A stretch of 64,000 nt of DNA from Sarcomyxa edulis. Lineage: Eukaryota; Basidiomycota; Agaricomycetes; Agaricales; Mycenaceae. The notes under the pieces are model-generated. The model was not told where the DNA came from. It saw only the letters and a program-made list of their open reading frames with translations, and searched no databases. Positions 6,010-56,555 of this stretch are shown here, piece after piece (positions within the stretch are counted from its first letter, which is position 1; every line of letters starts with the position of its first letter). A program made the position numbers and the translations under genes. Where the stretch lies: NCBI GenBank assembly GCA_009761415.1, contig QUOL01000011.1, positions 372,001-436,000 on the forward strand. Reading direction: 5' to 3'.

Positions 6010-9000
6010 ATGTCGGCCTACGACCATTCTCATGTGTCGCAATACATCGGTGCGTCTAGCAGGATTGTAGTCTCTAAAACACCGTTGACATACCCCATTT
6101 ATAGGCGGAAATTCATTGGAGAACGCGCCAGCAAGTAGTATTCATGACTTTGTAAAAAGCCACGGTGGTCACACCGTTATCACGAAAGTGAGTCCACTTT
6201 TTTTGGACTTGTTCGCGGTGGAACATTGCAAGACGCGCTATGGCAAATATCTAACTACCCTCTCTCCAGGTTCTGATTGCAAACAACGGTATGTTACCCG
6301 TATAACATTCTGGAACAGTACTAATTGAGCTATAGGTATCGCGGCCGTGAAGGAAATCAGATCCATCCGACAATGGAGTTACGAAACATTTGGACGCGAA
6401 CGTGAAGTCGAATTCACCGTCATGGCTACCCCAGAAGATCTCAAAGTAAACGCGGAGTACATTCGCATGGCCGACCGTTACATTGAAGTTCCGGGGGGCT
6501 CGAACAACAACAACTACGCCAACGTCGATCTCATTGTCGATGTTGCCGAACGCGCTGGAGTACATGCAGTTTGGGCAGGTTGGGGTCATGCCTCGGAAAA
6601 CCCCCGTCTTCCAGAGAGTCTAGCTGCAAGCAAGAACAAGATTGTTTTCATTGGACCACCTGGGAGTGCTATGCGTAGTTTAGGAGACAAGATCTCCAGC
6701 ACCATCGTTGCCCAGAGTGCCAACGTTCCTACCATGCCTTGGTCTGGTTCTGGAATCACAGATACTGCACTCTCGGATCGAGGCTACGTCATCGTACCAG
6801 AGGACGCTTATAACAGTGCTTGCGTGACGAGTGTTGAGGAAGGTCTGAAGAAAGCAGAGCAAATTGGATGGCCTGTGATGATCAAAGCTAGTGAGGGAGG
6901 AGGAGGAAAGGGTATTCGTAAAGTCGAACAGGCAGACGCGTTCAAAAATGCGTATCATGCTGTTGCTGGAGAGATTCCTGGTACGTGAATAGTATTCCTC
7001 CGACATATTCTATTTCCCTCATACGTTGTAGGCTCTCCCATTTTCATCATGAAACTCGCTGGGCAAGCACGGCATTTGGAAGTCCAACTTCTTGCTGACC
7101 AGTATGGCAATGCCATCTCTTTGTTCGGTCGTGATTGCTCCGTACAACGGCGTCATCAAAAAATCATTGAAGAAGCTCCAGTCACTATTGCAAAGGAGGA
7201 AACTTTCGAGCAGATGGAACGTGCTGCTGTGAGGCTGGCTAAACTTGTTGGATACGTCAGCGCAGGAACCGTAGAGTGTGCGTGTTTCGTTCTAGTCACT
7301 TTCATGTCACTAAAAGCAACCATTATTATTCTATGTAGATCTCTACAGTCATGTCGACGACTATTTCTACTTCTTGGAACTCAACCCTCGTCTCCAAGTA
7401 GAACATCCAACCACTGAAATGGTTTCCGGAGTGAATCTACCGGCAGCCCAACTTCAAATATCAATGGGTATTCCTATGCACCGTATCCGCGACATTCGCC
7501 AACTCTACGGTGTCGCCCCAAGCGCCTCTTCCGAAATCGACTTCGAGATGTTGAACCCAGACGCTAACAGACATCAGCGTAAACCAAGACCAAAAGGTCA
7601 CGTCGTCGCCGTACGTATCACAGCTGAGAACCCCGACGCTGGATTCAAGCCATCTTCCGGATCCCTTCAAGAACTCAACTTCCGTTCAAGCACCAACGTC
7701 TGGGGTTATTTCTCAGTCAGCACAGCTGGCGGTCTACACGAGTTCGCGGATTCTCAATTCGGCCATATCTTCGCGTACGGTGAAGACCGTGGCGAAAGTC
7801 GAAAGAACATGATCGTGGCTCTGAAGGAACTGAGCATTCGTGGAGATTTCAGGACTACAGTGGAGTACCTGATCAAACTTCTCGAGCTGGACGCGTTCAA
7901 GAATAATACTATCACTACCGGCTGGCTGGATTCGCTTATCAGCAACAAACTTACTGCTGAGCGTCCAGACGCGACTTTGGCTGTGGTCTGTGGGGCAGTC
8001 ACCAAGGCGTTCTTGGCTTCGGAGGGTTGTTGGGACGAATACAAGCGGATTCTCGACAAGGGTCAAGTACCTGCCCGTGATGTTCTGAAGACGGTCTTCG
8101 GTATCGATTTCATATACGAAAACACGCGCTATTCGTTTACCGCTGCTCGTTCCTCCATGACGGTTTGGACTCTGTATCTCAATGGAGGCAGGACGATGGT
8201 GGGAGCTCGGCCTTTGGCTGATGGAGGTTTGCTTGTTTTGTTGGACGGGAAAAGTCACTCTATTTATTGGAGAGAGGAGGTTGGATCGTTGAGGTTGATG
8301 GTCGACGCGAAGACTTGCTTGATCGAGCAGGAGAATGATCCCACACAGTTGAGGAGTCCGAGTCCCGGAAAATTAATCAGGTTTTTCGTGGATAGCGGTG
8401 AGCATGTCAATGCTGGGGATCAGTATGCGGAAATTGAGGTTCGTCTCTTATCTGAGCAGCTTGCTCTGATACTGATAATAATACTATCAACAGGTGATGA
8501 AAATGTACATGCCCCTCGTCGCCGCCGAGGATGGTACAGTCCAGCTCATCAAACAGCCCGGCGTAAGTCTCGAACCAGGTGACATCCTCGGTATCCTAAC
8601 TCTAGACGATCCCGCTCGAGTCAAACACGCAAAACCATTCGAAGGACTCCTCCCACCGATGGGCGCCCCAGGCGTCGTAGGCAACAAATCCGATCAGCGT
8701 CTCACTCGATGCGTACAAGTCCTCAACGATATTTTGGACGGATTCGATAATCAGGCTATCATGGTCACTACCATCAAAGACCTCATCGACGTCCTCCACG
8801 AGCCCGATTTGCCTTATGCAGAAATCACTGCTATCTTATCATCCCTCTCCGGCCGCATGCCTTCGAAATTAGAAGACAGTATCCGAGCTGCTATCGATTC
8901 AGCTAAAGCCAAAGGCGAAGCAACTGAATTCCCTGCTGTGCGAATTAAGAAACTCCTCGAACATTATGTTCAGGACAACGTCCTTCCCAAGGATAAGACG

Positions 9001-12000
9001 ATGTTCCGATCTGGTCTAGGAGCTCTTTTCGATGCGCTGGAACGATACATCGGGGGCTTGAAAGGTCATGAAACAGAGATTATCGCGAATTTGTTGGAGC
9101 GGTATGATGCGACCGAGAAATTGTTCGGCGGGAGCATCGAGGCGCGTATTCTCTCGCTTCGAGATCAATACAAGGACGATTTGGACAAGGTCGTCGCTTT
9201 GGTTCTGAGCCATATCAAGGCACAGAGTAAGGCGAAGTTGGTTTTGGCGCTTCTGGATTATGTGAAGACTAGTGGTTTGAATGTTTCGAATTCGGAGAGT
9301 CGTTTGTATAAGGTGTTGCAGAATCTTGCGGCGCTCGAGGCAAAGTACGTTCAATATCTGATAACGATGTTCAACGGGGCTGACAAGCCCAATTCTATAG
9401 ATCTTCTACACAAGTGTCCTTGAAAGCACGTGAAGTCCTTATTGTGGGACAGATGCCATCGTATGAAGAGCGTCTGATCCAGATGGAATCGGTACTCAAA
9501 AACTCTGTCACCAACAATTATTACGGCGAGCAAGGACAAGCCCCGAGGTATGAACAGCACGCTTCCTTCTTTCTCGTTCGTTTCTCATAACTCTACAGAA
9601 CACCCTCGGCTGAGGTTTTGAAGGAATTGAGTGACTCGCGATACACTGTCTATGACGTTCTTCCAGCATTCTTCAACCATTCCGATCCAATGGTCGTCCT
9701 TGGTGTGTAGTCTCTGGCATCCAATTCTCCGATAGCTGACTAGTCTCTTTCCAGCTGCTTTCGAAGTATACATTCGACGTGCATACCGCGCGTATACGTT
9801 GCTCTCCATTGACTATGAAGAGGGTGATGCCGTAGATGATGGTGAAGTACCTAACGTCGTGACATGGCGATTCAACCTTGGGCAATCTCATTCTCCTCCA
9901 TCGACTCCTAGAATATCCTTCGGGTGCGTGACTCAGATATCGTTGGAGTACTGAGACTCTAACATGACTATTTCTCTAGTGAGAATCGGAGACAAGGCTC
10001 AGTCAGCGATTTGACGTATATGTTGAACCGGCATCAGTCCCAGCCAGTGCGAACAGGAGCTATCGCCTCATTCGCTAATCTGGCCGCTCTTGCTCGGGGC
10101 TTTGGTAAGGTCGCTTCTATGCTACCTTCTTTCGACCCAGAAGAGTTCCGACACCGTTACGGGAGCAACAGCGATCCACCAAATGTCATGAACATCGCAC
10201 TGCGTATCTTCAACCCTGAGGACGACATGTCGGAAGACGAGTGGTTCAAGAAGGTGACCGAATTTGTCAATGATCATCGTGAAACCCTTTCTCGTCGCGG
10301 TGTGCGTCGTGTTTCTTTCTTCATATGTCGCCGTGGACAGTACCCCGTGTACTTCACTCTTCGTGCGGCCGATGGAGTTTGGGGTGAAGAGCAATCTATC
10401 CGTAACGTGGAGCCTGCCCTTGCTTTCCAACTCGAGCTCAGCCGATTGTCGAACTACAATCTTGTTCCATGCTTCGTGGAGGCCAAGCAGATCCATATCT
10501 ACCATGCCATCGCGAGGGAGAACCAGCTGGATAACAGGTTTTTCGTTCGTGCCCTGGTTCGGCCAGGACGTCTACGTGGAACTATGAGCACTGCGGAGTA
10601 TCTCATCTCAGAAACCGATCGGCTCGTTACCAGCGTACTGGACGCATTGGAAGTTGTTTGTGCTCAGCACAGAAATGCCGACGTCAATCATATCTTCATG
10701 AATTTCGTCTACAACCTCAATGTCACGTACGAGGATGTTCTCGCGGCTATCTCTGGGTTCATCGAACGTCACGGTAAACGATTATGGCGCCTCCACGTCA
10801 CTGGCTCGGAAATCCGCATTGCATTGGAAGACGACGATGGCAATGTCACTCCCATTCGTTGCACGATCGAGAATGTGTCCGGTTTCATTGTCAACTATCA
10901 CGGTTACCAGGAAATCACCACGGACAAGGGGACCACTATTCTCAAATCCATCGGCGAGAAAGGCCCTCTACATCTCCAGCCCGTACATCAAGCGTACCCA
11001 ACGAAAGAGTCCTTACAACCCAAACGTTACCAAGCCCATCTCGTTGGTACAACATATGTATACGATTTCCCCGATCTTTTCTCGAAAGCCTTGCATAATG
11101 TGTGGGTCAAGGCTCGCACTTGCGATCCTTCTCTGTCGATACCCAAGACCCTCTTGGAGTCCAAAGAACTTGTCCTGGACGAGCACGACCAGCTTGCGGA
11201 AGTCGACAGAGCACCTGGTAGCAATGCATTCGGTATGGTAGGATGGGTATTCACACTCAGAACTCCAGAGTTCCCACTTGGTCGTAAAGTTGTTGTGGTT
11301 GCCAACGACATTACTTACAAGATTGGATCCTTTGGTCCGATAGAGGATCAATTCTTCTATCTTGTCACTCAATACGCCCGGGACCATGGTCTCCCTCGCA
11401 TATACCTTTCGGCGAACTCCGGTGCTCGTATTGGATTGGCGGAAGAAACTCTTCCCCTCTTTTCTGCCGCGTGGAACGACAAAGACCACCCAAATAAGGG
11501 CGTCAGCTACCTTTACCTTACTCGTGATAACTTCCTCAAGCTTCAAGAGAAGGGTCTCGACGCGGTACGCACCGTTGAAATCGAGGATGACGGTGAACGC
11601 CGTTACAAAATCACCGATATCATTGGTTTACAAGACGGTCTTGGAGTAGAATGTCTGAAGGGATCCGCTCTCATTGCTGGAGAGACCTCGCGCGCCTACG
11701 ACGATATTTTCACCATCACATTGGTCACTGCTCGATCCGTGGGCATCGGTGCCTATCTCGTTCGTCTCGGCGAGCGAGCCATCCAAGTGGAAGGTCAACC
11801 AATCATCCTTACAGGTGCTGCAGCTTTGAACAAAGTCTTGGGACGTGAAGTCTACACCTCCAATCTCCAACTTGGTGGTACTCAAATCATGTTCAAGAAC
11901 GGTGTTTCTCATCTCACGGCTAGCAGCGATTTACAAGGTGCCACCCAGATTTTGGACTGGATATCGTACGTGCCCGAATTCAAGGGTGCCCCATTACCTG

Positions 12001-13309
12001 TACGCATCACCACTGATACTTGGGATCGTGATATCGGATACACTCCTCCGAAAGGAGCATACGATCCGAGATGGTTCATTGAAGGGAAGGTAGACGAGAG
12101 CACAGGAGAATACCTCTCAGGATTCTTCGACAAAGGATCGTTCCAGGAGACCCTGAGTGGTTGGGCACAGACTGTTGTCATTGGGCGTGCGCGTCTCGGT
12201 GGCATTCCGATGGGTGTCATTGCTGTCGAGACCCGTACTATCGAGCGAGTAGTCCCAGCCGATCCAGCTAACCCTGCATCGTTCGAGCAGCGTATCATGG
12301 AGGCCGGTCAGGTGTGGTACCCCAATTCGGCATATAAAACAGCTCAAGCTATTTTCGACTTCAACCGGGAAGAACTACCTCTCATCATATTTGCCAATTG
12401 GCGTGGATTCTCCGGTGGACAGCAAGACATGTATGACGAGGTTCTGAAGCAGGGATCAAAGATCGTCGACGGTCTTTCGAGCTACAAACAACCTGTGTTT
12501 GTGTACATCGTGCCGAACGGAGAGCTCCGTGGAGGTGCTTGGGTCGTCTTGGATCCTTCCATCAACTCAGAGCAGATGGAGATGTACGCCGATGTCGATG
12601 CTCGCGCTGGTGTCCTAGAACCAGAGGGCATTGTCGAGATCAAAATGCGTCGGGACAAGATTCTCAAATTGATGGAACGACTCGATTCCACGTATGCTTC
12701 CCTCAAACAAGCTACCAAGGATGCAGACAAAACGCCAGAAGAACGTGCACAGGCAGCGGCTGCACTGATTCAGCGGGAAACGTACCTTCAACCCACATAT
12801 AAGCAAATCGCATTGCTATACGCTGATCTACACGAGTAAGTCTCCCCTTTTGATTGGCTCCCTAAACTATTCTAATTATCTCTCCTAGCCGCACTGGTCG
12901 TATGGAGGCCAAAGGATGCGCCAAGCCAACTGTCTGGAAAGATTCCCGAAGACATTTCTACTGGGCAGTACGTGCTCGGGTCGCTCGCTCGGCTGCGTTG
13001 GCATTGTTGTTGGAAGCAAGCCCCGGAACGACGTTCGAATATCGCTCTGGACTTCTCGATTCGATCGCCTCTATCGAGCCTACCACGGAATACCGAGAGG
13101 TGGCAGAGACGTTGGAGAAACTCGATCTCACAAAAACGGTCATGGAACTCAAGACTGACGACTTGATGCGCCGATTGGTAGAAATGACACATCTAGATCG
13201 GAAGTCAACCATGGACGGCCTTATGCGTCTAGCGGACACCCTTTCGGAGGAAGAGAGGACAGAGCTTGTCTCTGTTTTGCAAAACGCGCCTCGCTCACCT
13301 GGTGCGTAA
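6010..13309 (+). CDS. ACC1: Acetyl-CoA carboxylase (cytosolic, multidomain)
   Basis: The enzyme carboxylates acetyl-CoA to malonyl-CoA, the committed step of fatty-acid synthesis. The ATG at 6010 gives [15 protein letters not shown]. The biotin carboxylase domain follows ([70 protein letters not shown]). The biotin site is EVMKMYMPL, with the biotinyl-Lys codon at 8500-8502, directly after a splice junction at 8493/8494. A long central domain comes next. The carboxyltransferase is mostly one large exon (from about 9980 to 12839) containing [28 protein letters not shown] and [21 protein letters not shown]. The last exon ends [12 protein letters not shown] at 13307-13309. The domain set and length (about 2,200 residues) match the fungal cytosolic enzyme, and no mitochondrial presequence is seen. 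An unusually short 19-nt exon (6270-6288) encodes VLIANNG. Confidence 0.97.
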
Positions 13310-17955: not shown

Positions 17956-19411
17956 ATGCAGACAGAGCTATCCGACCCCAGCAGCTCGACGGAATCTCTG
18001 GGAAGCTTTCGAACTCGTTCAGAGAGATCCATTTCTCCTTCAAGTTCACGAAGAGGCCCTTCAACCACCTTATCTAGCAGACTCGAAGCTAGACATGCAA
18101 AGGGAAAGTCAGATACCAGCACTGGCACTGGCACTACTACTGACGATGGAGACCAATCACAACTAAAACGGCATCCTGATCTATGGTTCGACGATGGAAG
18201 CGTGATTTGTAGGGCAGAGAACACTCTCTTTCGCGTTCATATGTCTCAATTATCACGGCATTCCATCTGCTTTCGAGATATGTTCTCATTCCCCCAGCCT
18301 CATCGCTCGGACGAATCGAATGGAGCAGGAGCAGGATCATCATCGAATAAACGGGAACATAGATCCGATAGTAATTCCAGTTCTTCAAGGAACGATCTCG
18401 AGAGCTGTCCCATCGTGTATCTACACGATGCTGCTGAAGATGTAGGAAATCTTCTGACAGCAATGTATGATGGCCCGTGCGTATCCTTGCTTATTTGCTC
18501 TGCATAATACCTTGCTGATCACTGGGGAACGTAGGAGTTTTGGCAACAATGACAGGGAAGACTTCCGCATCGTCTCGGGGATTCTTCGTCTTTCGACAAA
18601 GTACATGATCGATTCGCTACGTGCAAAAGCTCTTGCGCACCTGAGCGTGGCGTGGCCATGTACGTTAAAAGGATGGGATGCTAGAGAGGACTTGGCGCGT
18701 ACATATGAAGTGGAATCTATGACAGGGAACTTGTACCCCTCGCCCATTGTGAGTACCAGCCTACATGAATATATCAACTGAGGACTCAATACCCACATAA
18801 TCACACTTCCCAAGTCCGTCATAAACCTAGCACGAGAAGTCGACGCCCCCCAACTCCTCCCCTCCGCATTCTACGACCTCTCGCGTTATTCCTATACCCA
18901 GATATTCGAACCCAACGAAGACGAACCTCTCTACCGCCCCGACTCCGACTCTTCGCCCCCACTAAGCACCTCCGACATGCAACGCCTAGCTCTAGGCAAA
19001 GAATCCGCCCAACACACCATCACATCCCTCATCCAAGCCATGGGCGAAGGTCAATACGTCCGACAAACGCACCACCTCAACACCACGACCTCCCGCACCG
19101 TAACCCACATCCGGCGAACCTCCGGAGGAGGCATCTGCGTCTCCGCCGTCGCATGCCGGAAAGATTTCTCGGAACTGGTGGATCTGGCGACACAGCATTA
19201 TTTGTTTGATAGGGAGAGGGGGTGTTGCGATCCGTTGTATGTTGCGGAGGAGTTGGGGCAGTTGAAGAGTGCGGAGTTTTCGGAGTGTAAGGCTTGTGCG
19301 AAGGCTTTGGAGAGTTGGGCTGGGAGGGAGAGGGAGAGGATGTGGAAGTTGATTCCGTTGTGGTTTAGGCTTGAGCATGGGACTAGCGTGGATGGGGGGC
19401 CGACGAAGTGA
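17956..19411 (+). CDS. BTB/POZ domain protein
   Basis: The ATG at 17956 gives MQTELSDPSSSTES, a Ser-rich disordered N-terminus of about 65 residues. The BTB fold follows: HPDLWFDDGSVICRAENTLF, RVHMSQLSRHSICFRDMF, then IVYLHDAAEDVGNLLTAMYDG and FRIVSGILRLSTKYMIDSLR. A Ser/Asn-rich insert splits the fold after FSFPQPHRS. The C-terminal region (VDAPQLLPSAFYDLSRYSY onward) has several Cys (CCDPLY; CKACAKAL) and ends GTSVDGGPTK-stop. This architecture is common in lineage-expanded agaricomycete BTB families, usually annotated only as BTB-containing. A Cullin-3 adaptor role is possible but not shown. Its last exon shows a strong switch from C-rich to G-rich coding strand near 19170. Confidence 0.82.
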
Positions 19412-19802: not shown

Positions 19803-21647
19803 ATGGCTTCCCTCCTAGCCACATCCAGGATACTATCCCGGACAAAACCGAAAATACCATCCCTATTCCCATTCCCACCTTCCTCAACCCCTCTTTCCCT
19901 CTCCCTCTCCCTCTCCCGACGCACCATCTTCACCAAAAAACCCCCACCACCCCGCTCCCCCATCCGAACAGCCCTCTACGCAACAGCGTTCACACTCTCC
20001 CTAGGTCTCTTCGGAGTGTACTACCTCGATGCTCGGTCTGGTATTCATCGATATGTGTTCGGGCCTGTGATACGGTTCGTTTTGGGTCCGGAGGATGGTC
20101 AGAAGGTTGCGCTGAAGGTTTTGGGGAGTGGGTTGGGGTCGAGGGATTTTGGGGTTGATGATGGGAGGTTAAGGGTTAAGGTGGGTACTTGATTTTTGGA
20201 TCTTAATGGATTTTGGTTTTGAAGGGACTGCAATTCTGTTGCGTTCTGACCTATTAACTTACGACAATAACATTGCCGACTCGTGCAGATATGGGATCAT
20301 GAAGTCTCGAACCCAGTGGGTCTAGCAGCTGGGTTTGATAAAGAAGGTGAAGCTATTGATGGTATGTTTTATTTCTGTACTTTACACCCCTCCAAACGAA
20401 AACATCTGAATACCCTCCCCACAGGTCTCTTCAACCTCGGATTCAGTTGGGTGGAAATAGGCAGCGTAACACCAAAACCTCAGGTCTGTCTCCATGATTC
20501 CTCAGTCCCCACCCCTCAATTCACCTCAGTTATACTTATACCTCAAACGAGATAGCCAGGAAACCCCCGTCCCCGCGTATTCCGTCTCCCAGAAGACGGC
20601 GGACTAATCAACCGATACGGATTCCCATCCCAAGGGCACGCCTCAGTCCTCGCACGCCTCCGTGCCCGAGTACCCTCCTTCCTATCAGAAATCACGCCCC
20701 CGCCAACGACGGCATCCTTCCGCGAGGGTGCTCTTCTCGCTGTGAACCTGGGAAAGAATAAAGAATCACCGGTGGATTCTATAGAGGATTTCGTGGCTGG
20801 TGTGAGGACTTTTGGACCGTATAGTGATGTGTTGGTGGTTAATGTTTCGAGTCCTAATACGCCTGGGTTACGGTGCGTGTCTAATTGCTGGAACTTATTC
20901 GATTATTTTGCTTACTTGCTTACTTGTTTGCTTGCTGCAGTGGACTACAAAACAAGGATTTACTGAAGCAATTACTCGACGGAGTGACTGAAGCCCGAGA
21001 TAACCTCGCACCGGTCAACATCACATCCCGAAAACCGCAACTAGTGCTCAAAATCGCTCCTGATCTGGACGAGTCCCATCTTCGTGATATTGCCGAGGTT
21101 ATTAGAGGGAGCAGCATCGACGCGGTCATCGTGAGCAATACTACAACGCAAAGACCAGCGAGCTTGACGAGTCGTCAGTATCCCTTCCTTCCCCTCGCAT
21201 TCGAAAGCAATATTGATTAATTGCATTTGATATCTACCAGCCAACAAGATCGAATCCGGAGGTCTTTCGGGTATCCCTCTGAAACCCTACTCACTAGCCA
21301 CCCTCCGAACGCTGCGCACCCATCTCCCGGCATCGATGCCGCTAATTGGGTGTGGTGGTATCACTACAGGCCAAGACGCGATCGACTACGCAAAAGCAGG
21401 TGCATCGCTGGTACAAGTGTATACGGCATTTGGGTATGATGGTGTTGGCGCGTGTCGACGGATCAAGGATCAGATTGTAGAGATTTTGGAGAAGGAGGGG
21501 ACGACGTGGGAGGGGGTTGTTGATAAGGCTGTGAAGGAGCTTAGTATGAAGGAGGGGAGGAAGGAGGGGAGTGTGGGACAGTTGATTGCGGAGGCGGAGG
21601 AGTTGAATGTGTTGCTGGATAAGCTTGGTGCGAAATTGGGCCCATAG
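19803..21647 (+). CDS. URA9: Dihydroorotate dehydrogenase, class 2 (mitochondrial, quinone-linked)
   Basis: It oxidises dihydroorotate to orotate in pyrimidine synthesis and passes electrons to ubiquinone at the inner mitochondrial membrane. The ATG at 19803 begins a presequence rich in Ser/Leu/Arg ([11 protein letters not shown], encoded by a CT-rich tract), followed by a membrane helix ([20 protein letters not shown]). The catalytic domain has [38 protein letters not shown]-region [20 protein letters not shown] with the catalytic Ser, APDL, SNTT and [20 protein letters not shown]. It ends [15 protein letters not shown] at 21645-21647. The N-terminal helix and the catalytic Ser mark it as class 2 rather than the cytosolic fumarate-dependent class 1A. 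It is dependent on the ubiquinone made by enzymes such as COQ6 at 38-40 kb. Confidence 0.95.
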
Positions 21648-22423: not shown

Positions 22424-23747
22424 ATGCTCGTACTATCCACACTCGCTCTATCCCTCCCTTTCACAGCAGTTCTTGCCAATTCAAAACTACAGTCTCGCTC
22501 TCGTCATAGAAACGTCGCTCGTTCCGTGCAACGTCGAACAAACTCATCATATACCCTGACGGACATATACGAAGGAAAGACTTTCTTCGAGTGCGTCTTG
22601 TATTTCTCTTCTCCCCACCCGGGTCAGCATCTGACACCGCGTGTTTGTAGTGGATGGGATTTCTTCACTTCATCCGACCCAACGAACGGTCTCGTCAACT
22701 TCCAGAGTGAAGCAAATGCTACCTCAAAGGGATTAGCATACGTTCAAGACGATGATACCGTTGTCATTGCAGTAGATCACAGCACGACGTTGGCGAGTGG
22801 TTCCAAGCGCGACTCGTGAGCATTCCTTACTGCAATTATGATGGCTACCCTTTGTCTCATCAATTCATCAATACAACAGCGTCCGTATCAGCACCAAGAA
22901 GACATATAACAGTGGGCTGTTCATTGCTGATTTCTATGCCATGCCGCATGGTTGTTCGGTTTGGCCTGCTTGGTGGTACGTGTCTGGCTCCCCTGCGTGC
23001 GTTTCATGTTCCCTGGCTTATAATCCTTCGTGTCTCAGGTCCGTCGGACCTAGCTGGCCTGATGCTGGTGAAATAGGTGCGTAACCACGCCTTTTACACC
23101 TTCCATACTAATCTCACAAATCGCGTGCACTCTCATCAGACATCATCGAGGGCGTAAACACCCAAACTACCAACCAATACACCCTCCACACCACCTCAGG
23201 CTGCACCCTAGACAAAACCAACAGCAGCAACAACCTCTTCACCGCCAACGTCCTCAACACCCAATGCGAAAGTATCCCATCCGACAACACCGGCTGCGCC
23301 TTCCTAGACACCGACACCACCACCTTCGGCAAAGGCTTCAACGACATCGCTGGCGGTGTCTTTGCCCATCTGTGGGATGATACTGGGATTAGCGTGTGGC
23401 ATTTCAAGCGCACGGAGATTCCTGAGGATATCTCTTCGCGGAACCCTGATCCGACGAGTTGGGGGACTCCGGCGGCGTTTTGGAGCTCTGCGTCGTGTGA
23501 TATTGGGAATCATTTCTATGATCATGTGTTGACGTTGACGACGACGCTTTGTGGGGATTGGGCGGGTCCGGCGTTTAGTACGTCTTGCTCTGGGACTTGT
23601 GCGGATGCTGTTGCGGATCCTACGAATTTCCTTTGTGAGTTTTCGTTTCTTTCTTGTTCTGGTTATTTAGATTCTGACCATGATGGTGTCCGTTTCGTTA
23701 TTATAGACGCGAAATGGATGGTCAACTACATCGCGGTATACAACTGA
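22424..23747 (+). CDS. Secreted GH16 beta-1,3(4)-glucanase
   Basis: The ATG at 22424 begins a signal peptide (MLVLSTLALSLPFTAVLANS). The mature enzyme has YEGKTFFDGWDFFTSSDP, the substrate-cleft region TKKTYNSGLFIADF, then [22 protein letters not shown]. The last contains the GH16 catalytic signature E-x-D-x-x-E (nucleophile and acid/base Glu), assembled across an intron at about 23076-23139. The C-terminal part has Cys pairs (CDIGNHFYDH, CGDWAG, CSGTCAD) and ends AKWMVNYIAVYN-stop at 23745-23747. Overall it matches the fungal GH16_1 laminarinase/licheninase type acting on wall or external beta-glucans. About 325 residues are expected, and no GPI signal is seen. Confidence 0.9.
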
Positions 23748-28700: not shown

Positions 28701-30105
28701 TGATCATTCAGAATGGCAGCCTGGTCTCACTGTTGTAAGTGATGTTTTCTATCACGACAGCCAGTATGCTAAAATTGGATTACTTTTTAGCAGACACCGT
28801 TGAGCCCTAGCGTCAAAGATCTCATCAAACATGCTCTTCCTAAGCTTCTGGAGATGTACGACACCGAGGATGATAAGTGAGTGATCGTCATGATGTCTTT
28901 GCCTTCATATTCAATTCTTTACTTGATGAAAAATTAACTCAGCTCACCTCGACGCCCAAGGCGCATGAGATGATTCGAATTTTACTGATCTTTCATTCAT
29001 CATTTGTCTTTATGGCCTATTTTCTGACTGTTGTTGACTGTACAGGAGTGTCGTCTCTAGTCTCTGCATTGGGTTTGCTGAGACTATAAACGCCATTGGA
29101 CCGGCGTTCATCGAGGGTCGTGAGTACACTTCTGCATTATCTTGTACGTTTTGTGCTATGCTGACAATTTCTTCTTGTATTAGATTTCGATGAAGTCTGT
29201 GGCATTGCTGCCCAAATTCTTGAACAAAAAGCATACTGCCAACAGGATCCCGATTCTGATTTGGCTGATGAGGCACCTGAAGACCAAGCTGAATATGACT
29301 CAGTACTCATTTCGTCTGCTGGAGACCTTGTCGCTTCGTTGGCCAATGCGTTGGGTGGAGATTTCGTTCAAGCATTTGGGACTTTCTTCCCGCTGATAGC
29401 CAAATTCTACGTGAGTGGTTTTCTGTTATCGTGAATTACTCCCAACTTATATTTACGTCGCAGAGTGGAGAGCAACGGTCTCTAAGTGATCGTTCATCAG
29501 CCATCGGGTGTCTCGCTGAGATCATTGCTGGTATGAAGAGCGCTGTGACGCCCTCGACAGAACCTCTCCTCGAGCTCTTTTACCGTGCTCTTAGCGACAG
29601 TGAAGCCGAGGTTACGAGTAACGCAGCATTTGCTATTGGTCTCCTTGTCGAGCACTCCGAGGTGGACCTGTCTCCCCAGTACATCCACCTTCTTGCGGCC
29701 CTTCGTCCTCTCTTCAATGTTGCTCCCGATGCAGCTACTGCTAGCCTAAATGCTCGTGATAACGCTGCCGGCGCTGTGTGTCGTCTCATCATCCGGAACA
29801 CCGTCGCCGTTCCCCTCGATCAGGTCCTCCCTGTGCTTATAGATGCCCTCCCACTGAAGAACGACTTCCTGGAGAACCGACCCGTCTTCCGCGCCCTCTT
29901 CCACTTGTTCCAAACAAATGGACAAGTGCTCTACCCATTCATGGACAAACTGTTACAAGTATTTGCCCATGTCTTGGATCCAACTGGACCCGATCAGCTT
30001 GGTGATGAGATTAGGCCCCAGTTGATCCAGTTGATTGGGATACTGAATGCCGAGGATCCCGCGAAGGTGCAGGCTGCTGGATTGACACCGTACATCAGTG
30101 CTTGA
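25770..30105 (+). CDS. KAP123: Karyopherin / importin beta-4 family (Kap123-IPO4)
   Basis: It is a nuclear import receptor; yeast Kap123 carries ribosomal proteins and histones H3/H4 into the nucleus. The ATG at 25770 encodes only Met-Asp before the first intron, and exon 2 continues PNFVQGLHNLLVQLTANDT. HEAT-type helical repeats run the whole length: RQLAAVEMRKRVSQNSGELW (importin-beta N-terminal region), NLVRHSAARVIASIAGIEIP, DPETQKSACTALDAILEIL and VKAVVTGAIGSAAHASKEKF. An acidic loop (DEMDGADIEDLDNDMEKM), typical of Kap123/IPO4 and involved in cargo release, lies at about 28440-28500. It ends AAGLTPYISA-stop at 30103-30105. About 1,100 residues are expected, and there are many short introns. 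Confidence 0.94.
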
Positions 30106-30403
30106 ACTTGCTTTTGATTATTCTCTCCACTTTCTCTTCATGTTTTTTGTTACTCTGCTACCTACTAGTCTCTCAATCCTGGATCTACGTTTGATGTTTT
30201 CTGCAGTACTCTAGAATACTTTTTTTCGCATATTTTCTTTCCGTCTGAAGTAGAAAGTGACAGCACGTGACACCTGTCGCGTCTGCGCGTTATGATTCGT
30301 CACGCTCTTGATTTCCAAAAATCTGTTGCTGACCTACTAAGCTCGATTCAGTGAGCTCGCTGGCCGACTCGTCCCTCCCTCTGGTACCCGCCTTTATCCA
30401 ACT

Positions 30404-46256: not shown

Positions 46257-49200
46257 TTATTTCCTCTCAACGATATCATCCTCTGCGTCGCTGGCCATTG
46301 TTCTCCTCGAGAAGGCAGAGCTTCTACCAACCAAGCTTCCTGGTCTCCCACCAGATAATCTTTTATATGTCGGGCTTGGTGACCCGCTTCCAGGAGGACT
46401 GGGACTTCCGCTCACGCTATTCCGATTGATGTTTTGCACCAAGTTGCCTACAGTACCAGAAGGCGGTCTCGGCCCACGCGCAGACATTCTTGGTGACCGA
46501 GTCACGCCAGCCCCTTGATTAGAACCAGAGCGCGAAATAGAGGCTCGTGCAGAGCTAATGGGTCGATCTTCGTTGCTTGCTCCATTGCCGCCGTTGCTAC
46601 TGGCGGAACCGCTACGTGATCCAGCCTTCGTCGGGCTAGAGGAGCGGGAGCCTGCGAGTGCTGCACTCATGCGCCTAACGTTAGTTTTCGGCTGAGGTGT
46701 CGGGGGTGTCACAACGGGAGATGGCACTGGAGCTGGAGCTGGTGTGGGTTCGGCTTCAGGTTCTGCAAACGTCGTCGCGCCACTGGGACTAGGGATTTCC
46801 GCTTCCTCAGGTGGAGGATCGACAAATTTGGGCATCGGAGGGGGGCTGTGTTCGTCATGTTCGGGAGGCGGTTCCTTGAATGTAGGACGCGGCGGGAGGT
46901 CGTCGTCTTCTGGTGGAGGCTCTCTGAAAGAAGGACGTGGAGGAGGAGCATGTAGATCTGGCTCCACTACTTCTGGCTCCACTACTGCTGCGACTGGTTC
47001 AGGAGTAGGCTCTACAGGCGCTACAGGCACTGCAGGAGGGGTGATCTCAGCGGGTGATTCAGATGGTTGCGGCTGCGGCGGTGATGGGGGCGACGAGGTC
47101 CGCTGTATTACACCCACTGCAGGAAGAGGCTGAGGTGCAAAGATCTCGGGAGACTTGATTTTCGCTCCAAGAGAAGGGTTCTGAAGGGCAGCCTGGGCAG
47201 CAAGCAATTGTTTTGCATCGGCGCCAAGGGAGATACGACTGCGGCTTAGACGCATGTCGACGGGAGCCGTGCGTTTCCGGATAGGAACCTTTCTCTCGGA
47301 TTCACGTTTCTTGCGGACAATGGTCGGTGGAAGGAGAGCTGCGTAATTTTTCACAAGATCGATGAAGAGCACTATGTAACGAACAGGAAATCAATGTCAG
47401 TGACTGTGTCGTATTGAGCGGTGCGATACATACACGTAGGGTGACGGTCTTGAATAGAGATCTCTGACTCAAATTTGGGCCTGATAATAGCTAGAAGTAA
47501 ACGTATCAGGATCCTTTCTTTTCGCTTGAGGGTGTGACAATGAACTCACTGCGACCAACGGATAATGCAAGTTTGGTGATATACACCTCGTTAGGTTCCT
47601 CGACAGTCGTGGAATCAATTAGACTGAAGCAGTGTCAGATTTCCCTTCGAACCCAGGAGTCGTGAAACATAAAACTCACCTCTTGAGATGGCCAACAATC
47701 GCATCGAGTACGTATAGATGCACCCGTGGCAATCTCTGCAGTGCAGCCCCCAAATCCTGGATATGCTGCTCTTCGCTATTGTCTTCCGCCTTCGCCGCAC
47801 CCATCGTCGGATACAGCCTCCGGAAATCCTCCCAGCCCTCATATAATGCAAGTGGAGGATCGAGCTCCAACGTCCATAATTTAACAGTACTCGCGATAAC
47901 GGGGGCGTCATACTTGGCGATTAAATCCCTTGGGATAGGCTGGTCGGCTGGGAGAGCATTTAGGGCTTCCCGAAGATGATGTACGGCGGGCAGAGGAACT
48001 TCGTATATCCACGACTTTCTTTTCTCTGGACAAGATCGGAATGAGTGACCAGTCAGAACACAAACGAGGAGAAGACTTACCCGCATCATCAGGAAGTTTC
48101 TCGTACGCGACCTTCAAAGCCTCAAGCAAAGCAGTAACCACAGGTGGTATCACTTCCTTCTTCTCCTCCCCGCTAGTCAAAGCATTCCATCCTCCTTCAG
48201 CCCATTTTCTCAAATCGATGCCGAACACAACATCAGACTCATCATGAGACACCGACTCATACACCTGCGCGTCTGGCCTGAAAGGGCCCGTGCGATACCG
48301 CTCAATCAACGCCGTCAGGTCCGACTCGGGTTGATACGCTGCTATGAGCGTAGCAGAACGCTCTATAGACGGCTCGAGAGTTTTGGGAAGGTTCGCCAGC
48401 GTCCCCTGGTACTGCAACAGAACTTCAAGGGACATATTTCAGCACATCACGTAGATTGTAGATAGAAAGCGAGTGCTCTCACCCGTCTTGACAGCTCTCA
48501 GTCTCTCGATCTCCCACCTTTGCATCATCTTCAACGTATCTTCAACCCTCTCCTCAAGCCCCAATCGCTGTCTATCAAGTTTCCTAACAGCAACGCGGTA
48601 TGTCTTGTCAGCGTTCTCCGCATCGTGACGTGCCTTGACATAACCCGGCTCAGAGTTGTTGGCTTGGTTGTTCAAAGCCTTCGTGACGAGGTTTACAAAA
48701 GTACCAGTACGTTTGATGAGGTTCTCCGCAACGGGCTTGGCTCCACGCACTGGCGACGAGACACTGTGATTGTCCTGGTGGCCTTTCCAGTCCGCGTCGA
48801 AAGCCTGAGTACAGATTGTGAGCATTATACTCGTTTGGGAAGAAAATAAGACGCACCTTGGGCCTGAACTGATAAAACGCAACATCAGTCCCTTCGAACA
48901 GATTCCCGAATTCTCCAATGCGCCTCAACAACCCTTCCCGCTCTGTCAACTCCCTTGCAGCATCTTCAGCTCTATCCAGACTTCCTCCGAAGCCTTGTAC
49001 GTTCTCCGTCAACCATGCGACGAACTCTTCACCAGTGAAGCAGTCCTGGTATTCGCCTAAGAGAGGGAATCGGACAGGACGAAGAGGTAGCTCGGATGCT
49101 GCACGAGTCAGAAGTTGCGAGATTGCTACGGGAGGGAGGGAGAGACCCGCGAGGAGGAGTGGAGACGGGGGCATGGGAGGCATAGGCGACGTCGAGAGAC

Positions 49201-50355
49201 CAGGATGGACATTAGCATCGACGGAGAGTTTAGAAGGAGGGAGTGGGGGCGACAACGGAGGGGGAGACGCGAGCTGAGGAGGCGATGCGGGTGTTGTCTC
49301 GATATCGACGGCTTTGCCTTTACCCTTGTCGATTTTGGGCGCGTCGTCTTCCTCTATCTTGGGCTCAGACTCGGTAGTTCCAGAGAGAGCATCGGCACTC
49401 TTACGCTGAATCTCTTTGAGACGGAGAGCAATCCGTTCCGACACGCTTGGTGTGCGTTGCGGGGGTGCCCGACGATCAGCAGGTCGAACCCGAGGCGACG
49501 TGGTATACTTGTCGCCTATCTCATTGTTCGGAGCAAATTTGGCACTGTTCGCTTAGACGTTAGTGTACGAAAAAAAATCCAATTGTCTTGATGGCTACGT
49601 ACTCGTCTTCAGCCTCGTCTGCTCGACGTGTTTTCGCCAGATATTGATGTTTAAGTTTTGAGACCTGTGTGGGTTGGTCAGTAACGAAGTACACGCGATA
49701 TGGAGCTACGTACATCTCCTTGAGCGTGCTCGTAGGCCCGTAACCAGTTATCGATGACAGTATACCTAGTTTGCTTTAAACGCTCCTGCAAATGGGATAA
49801 TTAGATGAATGCATTGACGACAAGAGATGGACGACAAACTTTGTATCCTTGAGCCCATTCATCAAATGGATCAGCAACCAAAGTGTCTAGCTCTTTCGAA
49901 ATAGAATGATGGGCTTGTCCTTGCGCTACAGACTCGGCTTGAAGTCCGCGAAATGCCATGAGGAGGGATGCTCCATCGTCTGCACCAAAGCCAGTGCCTG
50001 GAACGACTCAACAACATGAGGTGATACGGCAAGTTACTGAACGTACCTGCAGGTCCAGTCAGGCTTGGATTGGTCAATGAGGAAGCTAGTTGTCTTTCGG
50101 CGAGTGCTCGAGCCTGCAATAATGGTGTGAGGAGGATTGGGGAACAACAGACAACCCACTAACCCTGATAAAAGCAATAATCTCGTCATTCTCCGCGACG
50201 CCCTAGTTATCCCATTAGCCAAGAACAGAACAACAGAACAGACAGACACGGTGCTCTACCTGCTCGAGTTTCTCAAACAAGACTTCGAGGCCTCTACGAT
50301 AGTCTTGCGACCAAAAAGAGTTTGTGAAGCTCAGAGGCAACGACAACACGGCCAT
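46257..50355 (-). CDS. RGD2: F-BAR / DEP / RhoGAP protein, Rgd2-like
   Basis: It is a membrane-curvature and Rho-GTPase regulatory protein with the domain order of yeast Rgd2. The ATG at 50353-50355 begins the F-BAR/FCH region (MAVLSLPLSFTNSFWSQDYR, RGLEVLFEKLEQGVAENDEI). A DEP domain is inserted in it (FTGEEFVAWLTENVQGFGGS, GEFGNLFEGTDVAFYQFRPK). The F-BAR resumes (YVKARHDAENADKTYRVAVR, KLDRQRLGLEERVEDTLKMM). The RhoGAP-like domain follows (FGIDLRKWAEGG, APVIASTVKLWTLELDPPLA). A long Pro/Ser-rich tail ends DAEDDIVERK-stop at 46257-46259. Where classical RhoGAPs have the arginine-finger motif (GIYRVSG), this protein reads SWIYEVPLPAVHHLREAL, with no Arg at the aligned place. Catalytic GAP activity is therefore uncertain. 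It likely acts at growth tips or septa. Confidence 0.88.
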
Positions 50356-54148: not shown

Positions 54149-55159
54149 ATGCAGTCAATCAGTTCAACCAGCAAGCGTGCATACGCCACAATGCCTCATC
54201 TAGCTAAAATCGCACGAACAAGATCCACTCCTCTAGCCGTCCGCCTCCGTCGCCAGAAAAAACTTGGCCACCCCATCCCACCCAACACCACAGACGCAAA
54301 AGCAAACGGCATGACACCCACCGAAGTCGCTACATTCCAACGACTACAAGCCTTAGGAAAAACCACCGTAGATGGGAAAGACTTGACGGAGGGACAATGG
54401 CTAGACAGACTCAACCAACGCCGATCTCGTATTCGCGGTATCCGTAACTTCAAACGGCAGGACGGTACAGAAGAATCCGTCGTCGTCGGTCAGAAAATCT
54501 ACCTCCCCAACATCGTATTCAAAATGGTACCAAACTACACCCCCAAAGGCGACGCCTACAATCCCTACGAAGCTACCTTCCGCGTTCCCCAATCCCTCAC
54601 AAAAACCGATATTCGATCTTATTTGTTGGCGATGTACGGTGTGAAAACGACGTACATACGTACAGACAACTATTTCTCGCCTCTGAGCCGAAACAACCAG
54701 ACGGGTGAAAAAGGACAGACTCAGTCGTATCGGACGTATAAACGTGCGGTCGTCGGTCTCGTCGATCCGTTTTATTACCCGCAACTGCAATCCGAGATGA
54801 AGACTAGCGAATTGATCGAACGGAGGTCGTGGTTGAAGAAAACGTTTGGGATTCGCGCTATTCAGATGGCTGCGAAGAATTATCAATTGCGGGTTAGTCG
54901 CCTCAATTCACCGACGTGGAGGTGGAGTGGGTTGTTGGCTCCGCGTAGGTCTTTCATTCTGAAGGAAATTGCGCATCGGAGAGAGGTTAGGGAGCATTTG
55001 GTGGAGGAGCAGGTGCGGTTGTGGCAGGATAAGAGGGAGGGGGATGTTCCTATTACAATGGCGCAGAGCGATCGCGTCAAGGGGCGGAAAACTAAGAGGG
55101 ATCATAGTAGTCCGCGTACAAGAAGATACGATCCTACGGCACCAACCCCGCTGGCGTAG
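54149..55159 (+). CDS. MRPL23 (uL23m): Mitochondrial large-subunit ribosomal protein uL23m
   Basis: It is a component of the mitochondrial ribosome near the peptide exit tunnel. It is one uninterrupted exon. The frame is open from 53942, but the first 69 codons have no family features. The ATG at 54149 gives MQSISSTSKRAYATMPHLAK, a plausible presequence; an alternative start is the ATG at 54191. The L23 core is IYLPNIVFKMV, NPYEATFRVPQSLTKTDIRS, YLLAMYGVKTTYIRTDNYFS and TYKRAVVGLVDPFYYPQL. A basic C-terminal extension runs to TAPTPLA-stop at 55157-55159. At 336 residues it is longer than bacterial L23, as is usual for fungal mitochondrial versions. The coding strand switches from C-rich (54241-54300: 28 C, 8 G) to G-rich (54961-55020: 6 C, 27 G). 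Confidence 0.86.
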   Translation: MQSISSTSKRAYATMPHLAKIARTRSTPLAVRLRRQKKLGHPIPPNTTDAKANGMTPTEVATFQRLQALGKTTVDGKDLTEGQWLDRLNQRRSRIRGIRNFKRQDGTEESVVVGQKIYLPNIVFKMVPNYTPKGDAYNPYEATFRVPQSLTKTDIRSYLLAMYGVKTTYIRTDNYFSPLSRNNQTGEKGQTQSYRTYKRAVVGLVDPFYYPQLQSEMKTSELIERRSWLKKTFGIRAIQMAAKNYQLRVSRLNSPTWRWSGLLAPRRSFILKEIAHRREVREHLVEEQVRLWQDKREGDVPITMAQSDRVKGRKTKRDHSSPRTRRYDPTAPTPLA

Positions 55160-55476: not shown

Positions 55477-56555
55477 ATGATCCTCTCCGTCTCCGTCTTC
55501 GCCTTTTCTTTTCTCCATTCTATGCTTCTCGTACACGCCTACCGCTCCGACTCCGACTCCGAATCATCCCAGCCCGCGTGCCGGCCTTTCAAAACGACCT
55601 TCCCCGCCTCTTCCGTCGGGCATTCCCCTTCTTCTCAATTCGTCGCAATTAGTCCTGAGAACTCATATCAAACCGGAGATGGCGGTGGACTCCAGCTTTT
55701 CATTGAGAAGCCTGAGGGGAGGGTTACGATGAAGAACGGTGCGAATAGCGAGGTTGCTGAGGGTGCGACTATTAATGCGACGGGGACTATGTTGTAAGTC
55801 ATTCACATTCGATTCATTCCTTTGGGAGGCTGAAATCTGAGAGCTGACTTCTGAACGCGCTTGGCTTGGCTTGATTATGGATTAGGTATGGTACAGTAGA
55901 CTTCGAGATATCAGCACCAGAAGTAGCGGGCGTCGTCACCGCTGTGATCCTCATCGGAGGTTAGTTTGGCTTCTTTACCTTTCAATCTGCAACCAGTATA
56001 AAAATAATATTAACTAATATCATGATGTATCCCAGCCTCCGAACGCGACGAAATCGACATCGAGCTCCTCGGTGGTATACCCGCACAATGGCAAACCAAC
56101 ATCTTCGCACCAACACCCAAAGATCCAGATCCTCATTATGGTCGATTCAGCTCTGATGAAGACGTTCCAGGGGATCACATCTCTGCATTCCATACATATT
56201 CCATTGATTGGGATGCTGATAGGATTGTATGGAGTGTGGATGGGGGTGTTGTGAGGACTTTGACGAGAGGTGCGTCACTGTGCCAGTGTTATCTGAGGCA
56301 GATATAAGTATAAGCAGAAACCAACTTCTAACATAACATGACTTTGTTTACAACGCTACAGAGTCAACATTCAAAAACGGTGAATACCACTACCCTTCGC
56401 ATCCGTCACGGATCCAGATGGGGATTTGGGACGCTAGTAGTCCGGCAGGGACCGCTGAATGGGCGCGAGGACCTATTGATTGGGAGAACGCGCCGCAGAG
56501 AATGAGAGCTGTTATTCGGAGTGTTACTGTTGGGTGTCCGGATTCGAGTTCGTAG
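55477..56555 (+). CDS. GH16 cell-wall transglycosylase/glucanase, Crh-like
   Basis: The ATG at 55477 begins a signal peptide (MILSVSVFAFSFLHSMLLVH-AYRS). The catalytic signature DEIDIELLGG, split from its upstream strand by an intron, is the Crh/xyloglucan-transferase-type GH16 form. Yeast Crh1/Crh2 enzymes link chitin to beta-glucan. Downstream are HTYSIDWDADRIVWSVDGGV, RIQMGIWDASSPAGTAEWA and a conserved ARGPIDW stretch. It ends VTVGCPDSSS-stop at 56553-56555, without a C-terminal chitin-binding domain or obvious GPI signal. About 275 residues are expected. It is likely secreted and active at the wall. The donor and acceptor sugars are not determinable. Confidence 0.88.

What the first reader, a model, noticed from the sequence alone, without database searches (positions are those of the whole stretch)
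18819..19411. Exon-scale C-to-G strand-skew flip, repeated in many exons on both strands
In many exons the coding strand starts C-rich and ends G-rich. BTB last exon: 18841-18900 has 30 C and 6 G; 19321-19380 has 4 C and 28 G. uL23m: 28 C/8 G (54241-54300) becomes 6 C/27 G (54961-55020). GH16: 28 C/4 G (23161-23220) becomes 10 C/23 G (23521-23580). DHODH: 29 C/9 G (20641-20700) becomes 8 C/20 G (20821-20880). The direction follows the gene: in the minus-strand RhoGAP gene the plus strand has 26 G/8 C near the exon 5' side (49201-49260) and 25 C/8 G near its 3' side (48901-48960). ACC1 exons 7374-8440 and 8494-9343, the Crh-like GH16 and epoxide hydrolase look similar. The switch restarts per exon, not per gene. 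The big ACC1 exon, KAP123, SEC6 and BUD6 show it weakly or not at all. A C-rich 5' half and G-rich 3' half could pair, folding exons back and bringing splice sites together, or could reflect exon-oriented mutation or selection.
Basis: partly seen in the sequence, partly recalled or inferred. Interest (0 to 1): 0.8.

Follow-up and report, generated by a model that had tools for sequence, protein, structure and literature searches.

The report
Mushroom exons switch from C to G
In this mushroom genome many exons use C-ending codons in their first part and G-ending codons in their last part, starting over at each intron; the pattern is real and its cause unproven, but it may be a trace of how DNA is repaired or recombined within exons.

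Summary
All ten quoted 60-base counts are exact. In the window plus 20 stretches elsewhere in the genome (264 kb, own gene models), synonymous third positions go from C-rich to G-rich along first, internal, last and single exons. This exceeds amino-acid-preserving shuffles (z 12.7) and restarts at introns: +0.233±0.025 within exons, −0.130±0.034 across introns. Intergenic DNA shows no such flip. A weaker gene-wide gradient coexists.

"Direction follows the gene" carries no information: a C-to-G flip reads the same on both strands. Fold-back pairing is not supported: in 10 strong exons folding is not significantly better than in polarity-keeping synonymous shuffles. Flip strength clusters by region (p=0.0024 outside the window). 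The change is mainly C↔G and roughly mirror-symmetric.

Best mechanism, unproven (about 1 in 3): a DNA repair or gene-conversion bias of opposite strand sign on either side of breaks inside exons, which act as homology islands between divergent introns. Exon-biased crossovers with a CNN-repeat motif in Schizophyllum fit (PMC4209137). No polymorphism, recombination or relative DNA was available.

The parts
18815..19162 (+). C/A-ending part of the last exon of a BTB-domain protein gene
   Evidence: LLR 72.9; C/G flip at codon 116, best width 1.5 codons; homologs in many Agaricomycetes, some named BTB domain-containing; no Pfam hit for the exon alone
19163..19411 (+). G/T-ending part of the same exon, up to the stop codon
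19803..20180 (+). First exon of the DHODH gene model, flip near 20046
   Evidence: C/G LLR 25.7, best width 5.5 codons
20556..20872 (+). DHODH internal exon, flip near 20721 (best width about 11 codons)
   Evidence: LLR 16.0; Pfam DHO_dh
21241..21647 (+). DHODH last exon, flip near 21396
   Evidence: LLR 15.3; Pfam DHO_dh
23140..23634 (+).
54191..55159 (+).
   Evidence: LLR 36.2, width unresolved; Pfam Ribosomal_L23
7339..8438 (+). Exon of the ACC1 gene model, flip near 7797
   Evidence: LLR 18.6, width unresolved
8494..9344 (+). ACC1 exon with a gradual flip towards its 3' end
   Evidence: LLR 23.0, best width 35 codons; Pfam ACC_central
55477..55793 (+). First exon of the next gene model, C-to-G flip
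   Evidence: LLR 13.5, width unresolved; no Pfam hit
48857..49544 (-).
   Evidence: Pfam DEP; absent from the LLR>8 list
9980..12835 (+). Long ACC1 exon without a flip: C-biased almost throughout
   Evidence: 25-codon profile

Best explanation
Shown: in this agaric genome exons carry a C-to-G flip of synonymous composition that is roughly mirror-symmetric between strands, restarts at introns, is step-like in the best-resolved cases, varies by genomic region and is absent from intergenic DNA. Inferred: it is the long-term footprint of a DNA-level, break-centred process in exons. Breaks, most simply meiotic double-strand breaks, arise inside exons. The two sides of a break expose opposite strands, so any repair rule that prefers C over G on one named strand leaves C-excess on the left and G-excess on the right, whichever way the gene reads. 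One concrete rule: heteroduplex mismatches that contain G are corrected towards the donor, while those that contain C (C/C above all) often escape. Then C accumulates on the invading 3' strand, G is lost from it, and A and T hardly move. Exons bound the process because introns and intergenic DNA differ too much between haplotypes of an outbred mushroom for stable strand exchange.
For: The flip is strand-symmetric in form, and the two sides change roughly alike: ln C left/right 0.235±0.037 and ln G right/left 0.373±0.049 at 4-fold sites (a difference of about 2 SE), C:T odds 0.301±0.059 and G:A odds 0.371±0.067 at 2-fold sites; A 0.054±0.032 and T 0.018±0.028 nearly flat (A-to-T slope 0.07±0.04). 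Flat A/T on average argues against plain C or A deamination. Flip strength clusters by 10-kb region: between-locus R2 0.474 against 0.240 permuted, p=0.0024, 80 genes outside the window; adjacent genes rho 0.31, p=0.02 outside the window. No link with GC3 outside the window (rho -0.02), as a C-versus-G bias without net GC gain predicts. Intergenic flip -0.015±0.009 (104 segments) against +0.113±0.010 in exons (174 segments). External: in Schizophyllum commune crossovers are enriched in exons and under-represented in introns, and crossover regions with 400-nt flanks carry CCNCNNCNNCNN..., also against random exons (PMC4209137, passages and section 8). That motif occurs 1.17 per kb in the 32 strong-flip exons here, 0.35±0.10 in their synonymous shuffles and 0.21 in all DNA, partly by construction. 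MutS-type matches at 6 genomic places (10 exon matches) and Rad51-family matches (11) show only that general machinery is present.
Against: No recombination, polymorphism or haplotype data were available. Introns do not share the G-C skew of neighbouring exon ends (rho 0.08 and 0.07, not significant, 185 introns), nor do 3' UTRs (rho 0.005), though the 5' UTR does (rho 0.44, p=0.004, 40 genes). Successive exons of one gene do not correlate in flip strength (rho 0.09, p=0.35). In the strongest 18 exons A and T shift too (A 0.250 to 0.156, T 0.207 to 0.303), so the bias is not purely C/G. A gene-wide gradient coexists; over all genes at 4-fold sites gene position alone is nearly as good as exon position (dLL 86.7 against 98.4; both 130.4). 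An end effect decaying over 200-400 bp fits somewhat better than relative position (dLL 106.8 at 200 bp against 98.4, two more parameters), so true scaling with exon length is not shown. Widths are unresolved in 12 of 32 strong exons and gradual in 8494-9344. The crossover motif is not enriched in the weaker exons: 0.20 per kb against 0.36±0.07 shuffled at LLR 3-8, 0.28 against 0.27±0.06 at LLR<3. Codon positions 1+2 flip too (0.085±0.010), but in the BTB exon 117 homologs show the same amino-acid-level flip (mean 0.289 against 0.322 here), so that part can be old protein composition. The S. commune paper itself argues that GC-biased conversion is an unlikely cause of its patterns (passage). 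The mismatch rule rests on recalled mismatch-repair specificity. No motif was found at flip points beyond weak 5-mers.
Confidence: 0.33

Rival explanations
1. RNA-level selection on exons: splicing, nuclear export or translation factors favour C-rich exon starts and G-rich exon ends, or weak local structure, in the pre-mRNA.
For: The pattern follows exon edges and restarts at introns; introns show no matching G-C skew; local folding is weaker than in shuffles in 32 strong exons (z +1.41±0.26); the 5' UTR shares the C excess.
Against: First, last and single exons have slopes like internal ones (1.14±0.40, 1.03±0.20, 1.38±0.63; internal 1.06±0.19), so two flanking splice sites are not needed. 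Regional clustering and rough mirror symmetry are not expected from it. Long-range folding is not clearly improved.
Confidence: 0.25
2. Mutation rather than conversion: breaks or nicks in introns and gene flanks, with resection into exons; C-to-G changes on exposed single strands leave C-rich exon starts and G-rich ends.
For: Direction fits if breaks lie outside exons; an end-decay of 200-400 bp fits the profile well; human germline break-associated C-to-G clusters are a recalled analogue.
Against: Tracts should run through short introns and several exons, yet the pattern restarts at introns; intergenic DNA shows no flip; sharp steps inside some exons are not expected from two overlapping decays.
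Confidence: 0.17
3. Transcription-coupled asymmetry: known C-over-G skew at transcription starts, fading along the gene, plus deamination of exposed strands.
For: C excess of -0.218 in the 60 bp before start codons, 96 genes; a gene-wide gradient exists; C-skew upstream of translation starts is known in some fungi (PMC555766, abstract and outline).
Against: Exon position outweighs gene position in internal exons (1.01±0.16 against 0.21±0.13); the skew falls back across introns; A and T are nearly flat at 4-fold sites on average, unlike deamination.
Confidence: 0.1
4. Amino-acid composition or gene-model artefact: the flip reflects protein content or the ab initio exon edges.
For: Synonymous shuffles keep part of the flip (0.045 of 0.139); homologs of the BTB exon share the amino-acid-level flip.
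Against: The excess over synonymous shuffles is z 12.7; the frames found without gene models show it; 7 of 10 tested exons have Pfam matches at E<=0.001, one of them (29464-30096) below Pfam's cut-off, and the BTB exon has 230 homologs.
Confidence: 0.03

Closest known systems
GC-compositional strand bias around transcription or translation starts in plants and fungi (Fujimori 2005, PMC555766; abstract and outline seen)
   Same: C over G on the sense strand at gene starts; present here in the 60 bp before start codons
   Different: That bias is tied to the gene start; here the C excess returns at the start of internal exons and turns into G excess at exon ends
Splicing-coupled strand asymmetry (Touchon 2004; Zhang 2008; seen only as cited in passages of PMC10030826)
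   Same: Composition asymmetry tied to exon-intron structure
   Different: Described there as differences between exons and introns, absent in intronless genes; here a sign flip inside exons, also in single-exon gene models
Biased gene conversion, standard GC-favouring form (recalled)
   Same: A recombination-driven composition bias is the inferred cause
   Different: No relation to GC3 outside the window; the bias is C against G by strand, not GC against AT
Crossover regions in Schizophyllum commune exons with a (CNN)n motif (PMC4209137; passages and section 8 seen)
   Same: Exon-biased recombination in a mushroom and runs of C every third base
   Different: No strand flip or C-then-G polarity in the passages I read; the word skew does not occur in its text

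Membership tests
TSS-associated C-over-G skew | C excess just upstream of the start codon on the sense strand | tested here: met
   -0.218 in the 60 bp upstream, 96 genes
TSS-associated C-over-G skew | Confined to the gene start | tested here: not met
   internal exons show a slope like that of first exons
Splicing-coupled strand asymmetry | Bound to exon-intron boundaries | tested here: met
   falls back across introns by 0.130±0.034, 145 introns, 61% negative
Splicing-coupled strand asymmetry | Absent from intronless genes | tested here: inconclusive
   11 single-exon models flip with slope 1.38±0.63, but the models are ab initio
GC-biased gene conversion | Higher GC at synonymous sites where the process is strong | tested here: not met
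   flip against GC3 rho -0.02 outside the window, 0.07 overall; only 4-fold GC overall is weakly related (rho 0.16, p=0.02)
GC-biased gene conversion | Linked to recombination events | not testable with these tools
   no cross, tetrad or population data
Single-strand deamination asymmetry | C to T and A to G on one strand, so that A and T also flip at 4-fold sites | tested here: not met
   A and T nearly flat on average; a partial A/T shift in the 18 strongest exons
Exon fold-back RNA structure | Specific pairing beyond that of composition | tested here: not met
   10 exons against synonymous shuffles within 20-codon blocks: none beyond 2 sd; against half-preserving shuffles 2 of 10 beyond 2 sd

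The most novel reading that the evidence does not exclude
Mushroom exons record, in the sign of their synonymous C/G skew, the polarity of recombination: a strand-asymmetric gene-conversion drive, caused by C-containing mismatches escaping repair, writes C left and G right of break sites inside exons. One assembled genome could then be read as a map of historical exon-internal recombination sites.
Probability: 0.25. Interest if true: 0.92.

Novelty: new variant of a known kind. Interest (0 to 1): 0.75.

Why it matters
A sawtooth in base composition that restarts at introns, with near-total codon polarity in the extreme cases, is not what standard views of codon usage, splicing or mutation lead one to expect. 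If it is a recombination footprint, it would give a sequence-only readout of where breaks are repaired in mushrooms and evidence for a strand-specific form of biased gene conversion. If it is selection, it would reveal an exon-scale rule in pre-mRNA. Either way it would distort codon-usage, gene-finding and substitution models in such genomes.

Tried and rejected
RNA fold-back: tested on 10 exons, no clear specific pairing. Deamination of exposed strands: my first idea (note), dropped because A and T are nearly flat at 4-fold sites. Breaks in open chromatin acting everywhere: dropped because intergenic DNA shows no flip. Skew carried into introns: not significant in G-C terms; in the earlier keto measure upstream exon against intron correlated weakly (rho 0.17, p=0.006; against the first 20 intron bases rho 0.13, p=0.04). 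Strict scaling with exon length: not shown. Amino-acid drive in the BTB exon: not supported, homologs share the flip. Motif at flip points: nothing convincing. The first gene-finder run merged genes and was replaced (then 15). Literature: 10 searches. Three returned nothing and most of the others were capped lists (for example 20 of 32, 15 of 52, 15 of 1,210). No title or opening of an abstract among the listed papers describes an exon-scale C-to-G flip; the library lacks most subscription papers. Read only in part: PMC9612004 (outline, passages), PMC4889658 (passages), PMC9001825 (outline with abstract), PMC4209137 (passages, section 8), PMC555766 (outline with abstract), PMC10030826 (passages). 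Rows dropped: gene models under 300 bp of coding sequence; exons cut by a stretch end; short exons as stated per call; the eight 3-kb loci (chosen by an intron pattern) from then on, but they were still in the pool. All exon numbers rest on one ab initio gene finder without RNA evidence, on 264 kb (0.7%) of one genome.

Full report
What was checked. The ten 60-base counts in the finding are exact. The window lies at C3:372001-436000 of a 35.6-Mb genome in 40 contigs. Protein matches place it among mushroom-forming fungi: a 974-aa frame matches axial budding pattern protein 2 of Agaricomycetes, the best named hits being Mycena species at about 50-54% identity (best 120 of 368 listed), and the BTB exon has 230 homologs, the named ones among the 120 listed being Agaricomycetes.

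The pattern is general. Mean third-position GC skew rises from about -0.3 at exon starts to about +0.1 at exon ends, in first, internal, last and single exons and outside as well as inside the window. Against shuffles that keep the amino acids of each exon the excess has z 12.7 over 265 exons; 24 exons rise beyond z 3 and none fall. With a C/G-only change point, 44 of 205 exons exceed LLR 6 in the C-to-G sense and 2 in the other; shuffles give 4.65 and 0.95. A check on 52 long stop-free frames without gene models agrees.

It is exon-bound. Within exons the skew rises by 0.233±0.025 (311 exons); from the second half of one exon to the first half of the next it falls by 0.130±0.034 (145 introns, 61% negative). 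In internal exons the exon term is 1.01±0.16 and the gene term 0.21±0.13; over all exons of genes with three or more exons the terms are 0.91±0.14 and 0.45±0.11. Over all genes at 4-fold sites gene position alone is nearly as good a predictor as exon position (dLL 86.7 against 98.4; both together 130.4). Unoriented exon segments flip by +0.113±0.010 (174) and intergenic segments by -0.015±0.009 (104). An end effect with 200-400 bp decay fits somewhat better than relative position, with two more parameters, and exons of 90-200 bp show only 0.42±0.32.

The orientation argument is empty. A C-rich to G-rich step on one strand is, read on the other, again C-rich to G-rich. That plus-strand and minus-strand genes both show it (0.276±0.037 and 0.247±0.035) is therefore no evidence for coupling to transcription. 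The rough mirror symmetry is itself a clue towards a DNA-level process.

Form of the bias. At 4-fold sites C falls and G rises (log ratios 0.235±0.037 and 0.373±0.049) while A and T stay nearly level on average. In the 18 strongest exons the left side is A 0.250, C 0.455, G 0.088, T 0.207 and the right side A 0.156, C 0.160, G 0.381, T 0.303, so there A and T join in. Twenty of 32 strong exons disfavour 25 codons by more than 2 units; the other 12 do not resolve the width or are gradual, for example 8494-9344.

Regional clustering. Genes in the same 10-kb stretch share flip strength (R2 0.474 against 0.240 by permutation, p=0.0024, 80 genes in 20 stretches outside the window), and adjacent genes correlate (rho 0.33 overall, 0.31 outside the window). 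Successive exons of one gene do not (rho 0.09, p=0.35), which I cannot explain well. There is no relation to GC3 outside the window and only a weak one with 4-fold GC overall (rho 0.16, p=0.02).

Mechanisms. Fold-back pairing is not supported: of 10 exons none is beyond 2 sd of 20-codon-block synonymous shuffles, 2 are beyond 2 sd of half-preserving shuffles and 1 of whole-exon shuffles. Splice-site-linked selection is weakened because first, last and single exons behave like internal exons. Deamination fails on A and T. A break-centred repair process in exons would give the mirror-symmetric flip, its direction and its regional variation. A published crossover study in Schizophyllum commune found crossovers enriched in exons, under-represented in introns, and a CCNCNNCNN... 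motif in crossover regions with flanks, also against random exons (PMC4209137; passages, section 8); the same paper holds GC-biased conversion to be an unlikely cause of its own patterns. The motif is dense in the 32 strong-flip exons here (1.17 per kb against 0.35 in synonymous shuffles), partly because of how those exons were chosen, and is not enriched in weaker exons (0.20 against 0.36, and 0.28 against 0.27). The mismatch rule that I propose (G-mismatches corrected towards the donor, C-mismatches escaping) is inference from recalled mismatch-repair specificity.

What stands against it. Introns do not carry the G-C skew on. The amino-acid-level flip of the BTB exon is shared by homologs (117 of 120 measurable, 38 with a flip at least as large), so it need not come from a drive. 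No recombination data exist here. I therefore put the mechanism at about one in three and the observation itself near certainty.

Noticed in passing
window 30342-33328: My gene model joins this large exon to the upstream gene; its frame 30404-33325 matches axial budding pattern protein 2 (Axl2), and a Mycena sanguinolenta database protein of 1548 aa (P0168, named for an importin N-terminal domain) also contains it, suggesting conserved neighbours fused in annotation.
   Followed up: partly
L026 (C7:100001-110000) and L024 (C5:100001-110000) against L012, L014, L019, L025, L028: Mean gene flip differs strongly between 10-kb stretches (0.86 and 0.67, the latter from 2 genes, against -0.08 to 0.04), a possible map of regional intensity.
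   Followed up: partly
window 30342-33328: This long exon seems to show several successive C-to-G rises with resets inside one exon, by eye only (25-codon profile).
   Followed up: no
G000 contigs C21, C27 and C32: Two 25-base intron-like strings on C21 recur on C27, one of them also on C32, pointing to a repeated segment shared by these contigs.
   Followed up: no
window 47679-47984, minus strand: RhoGAP domain of the minus-strand gene found by Pfam PF00620, one of 17 exon-level matches in the genome.
   Followed up: no
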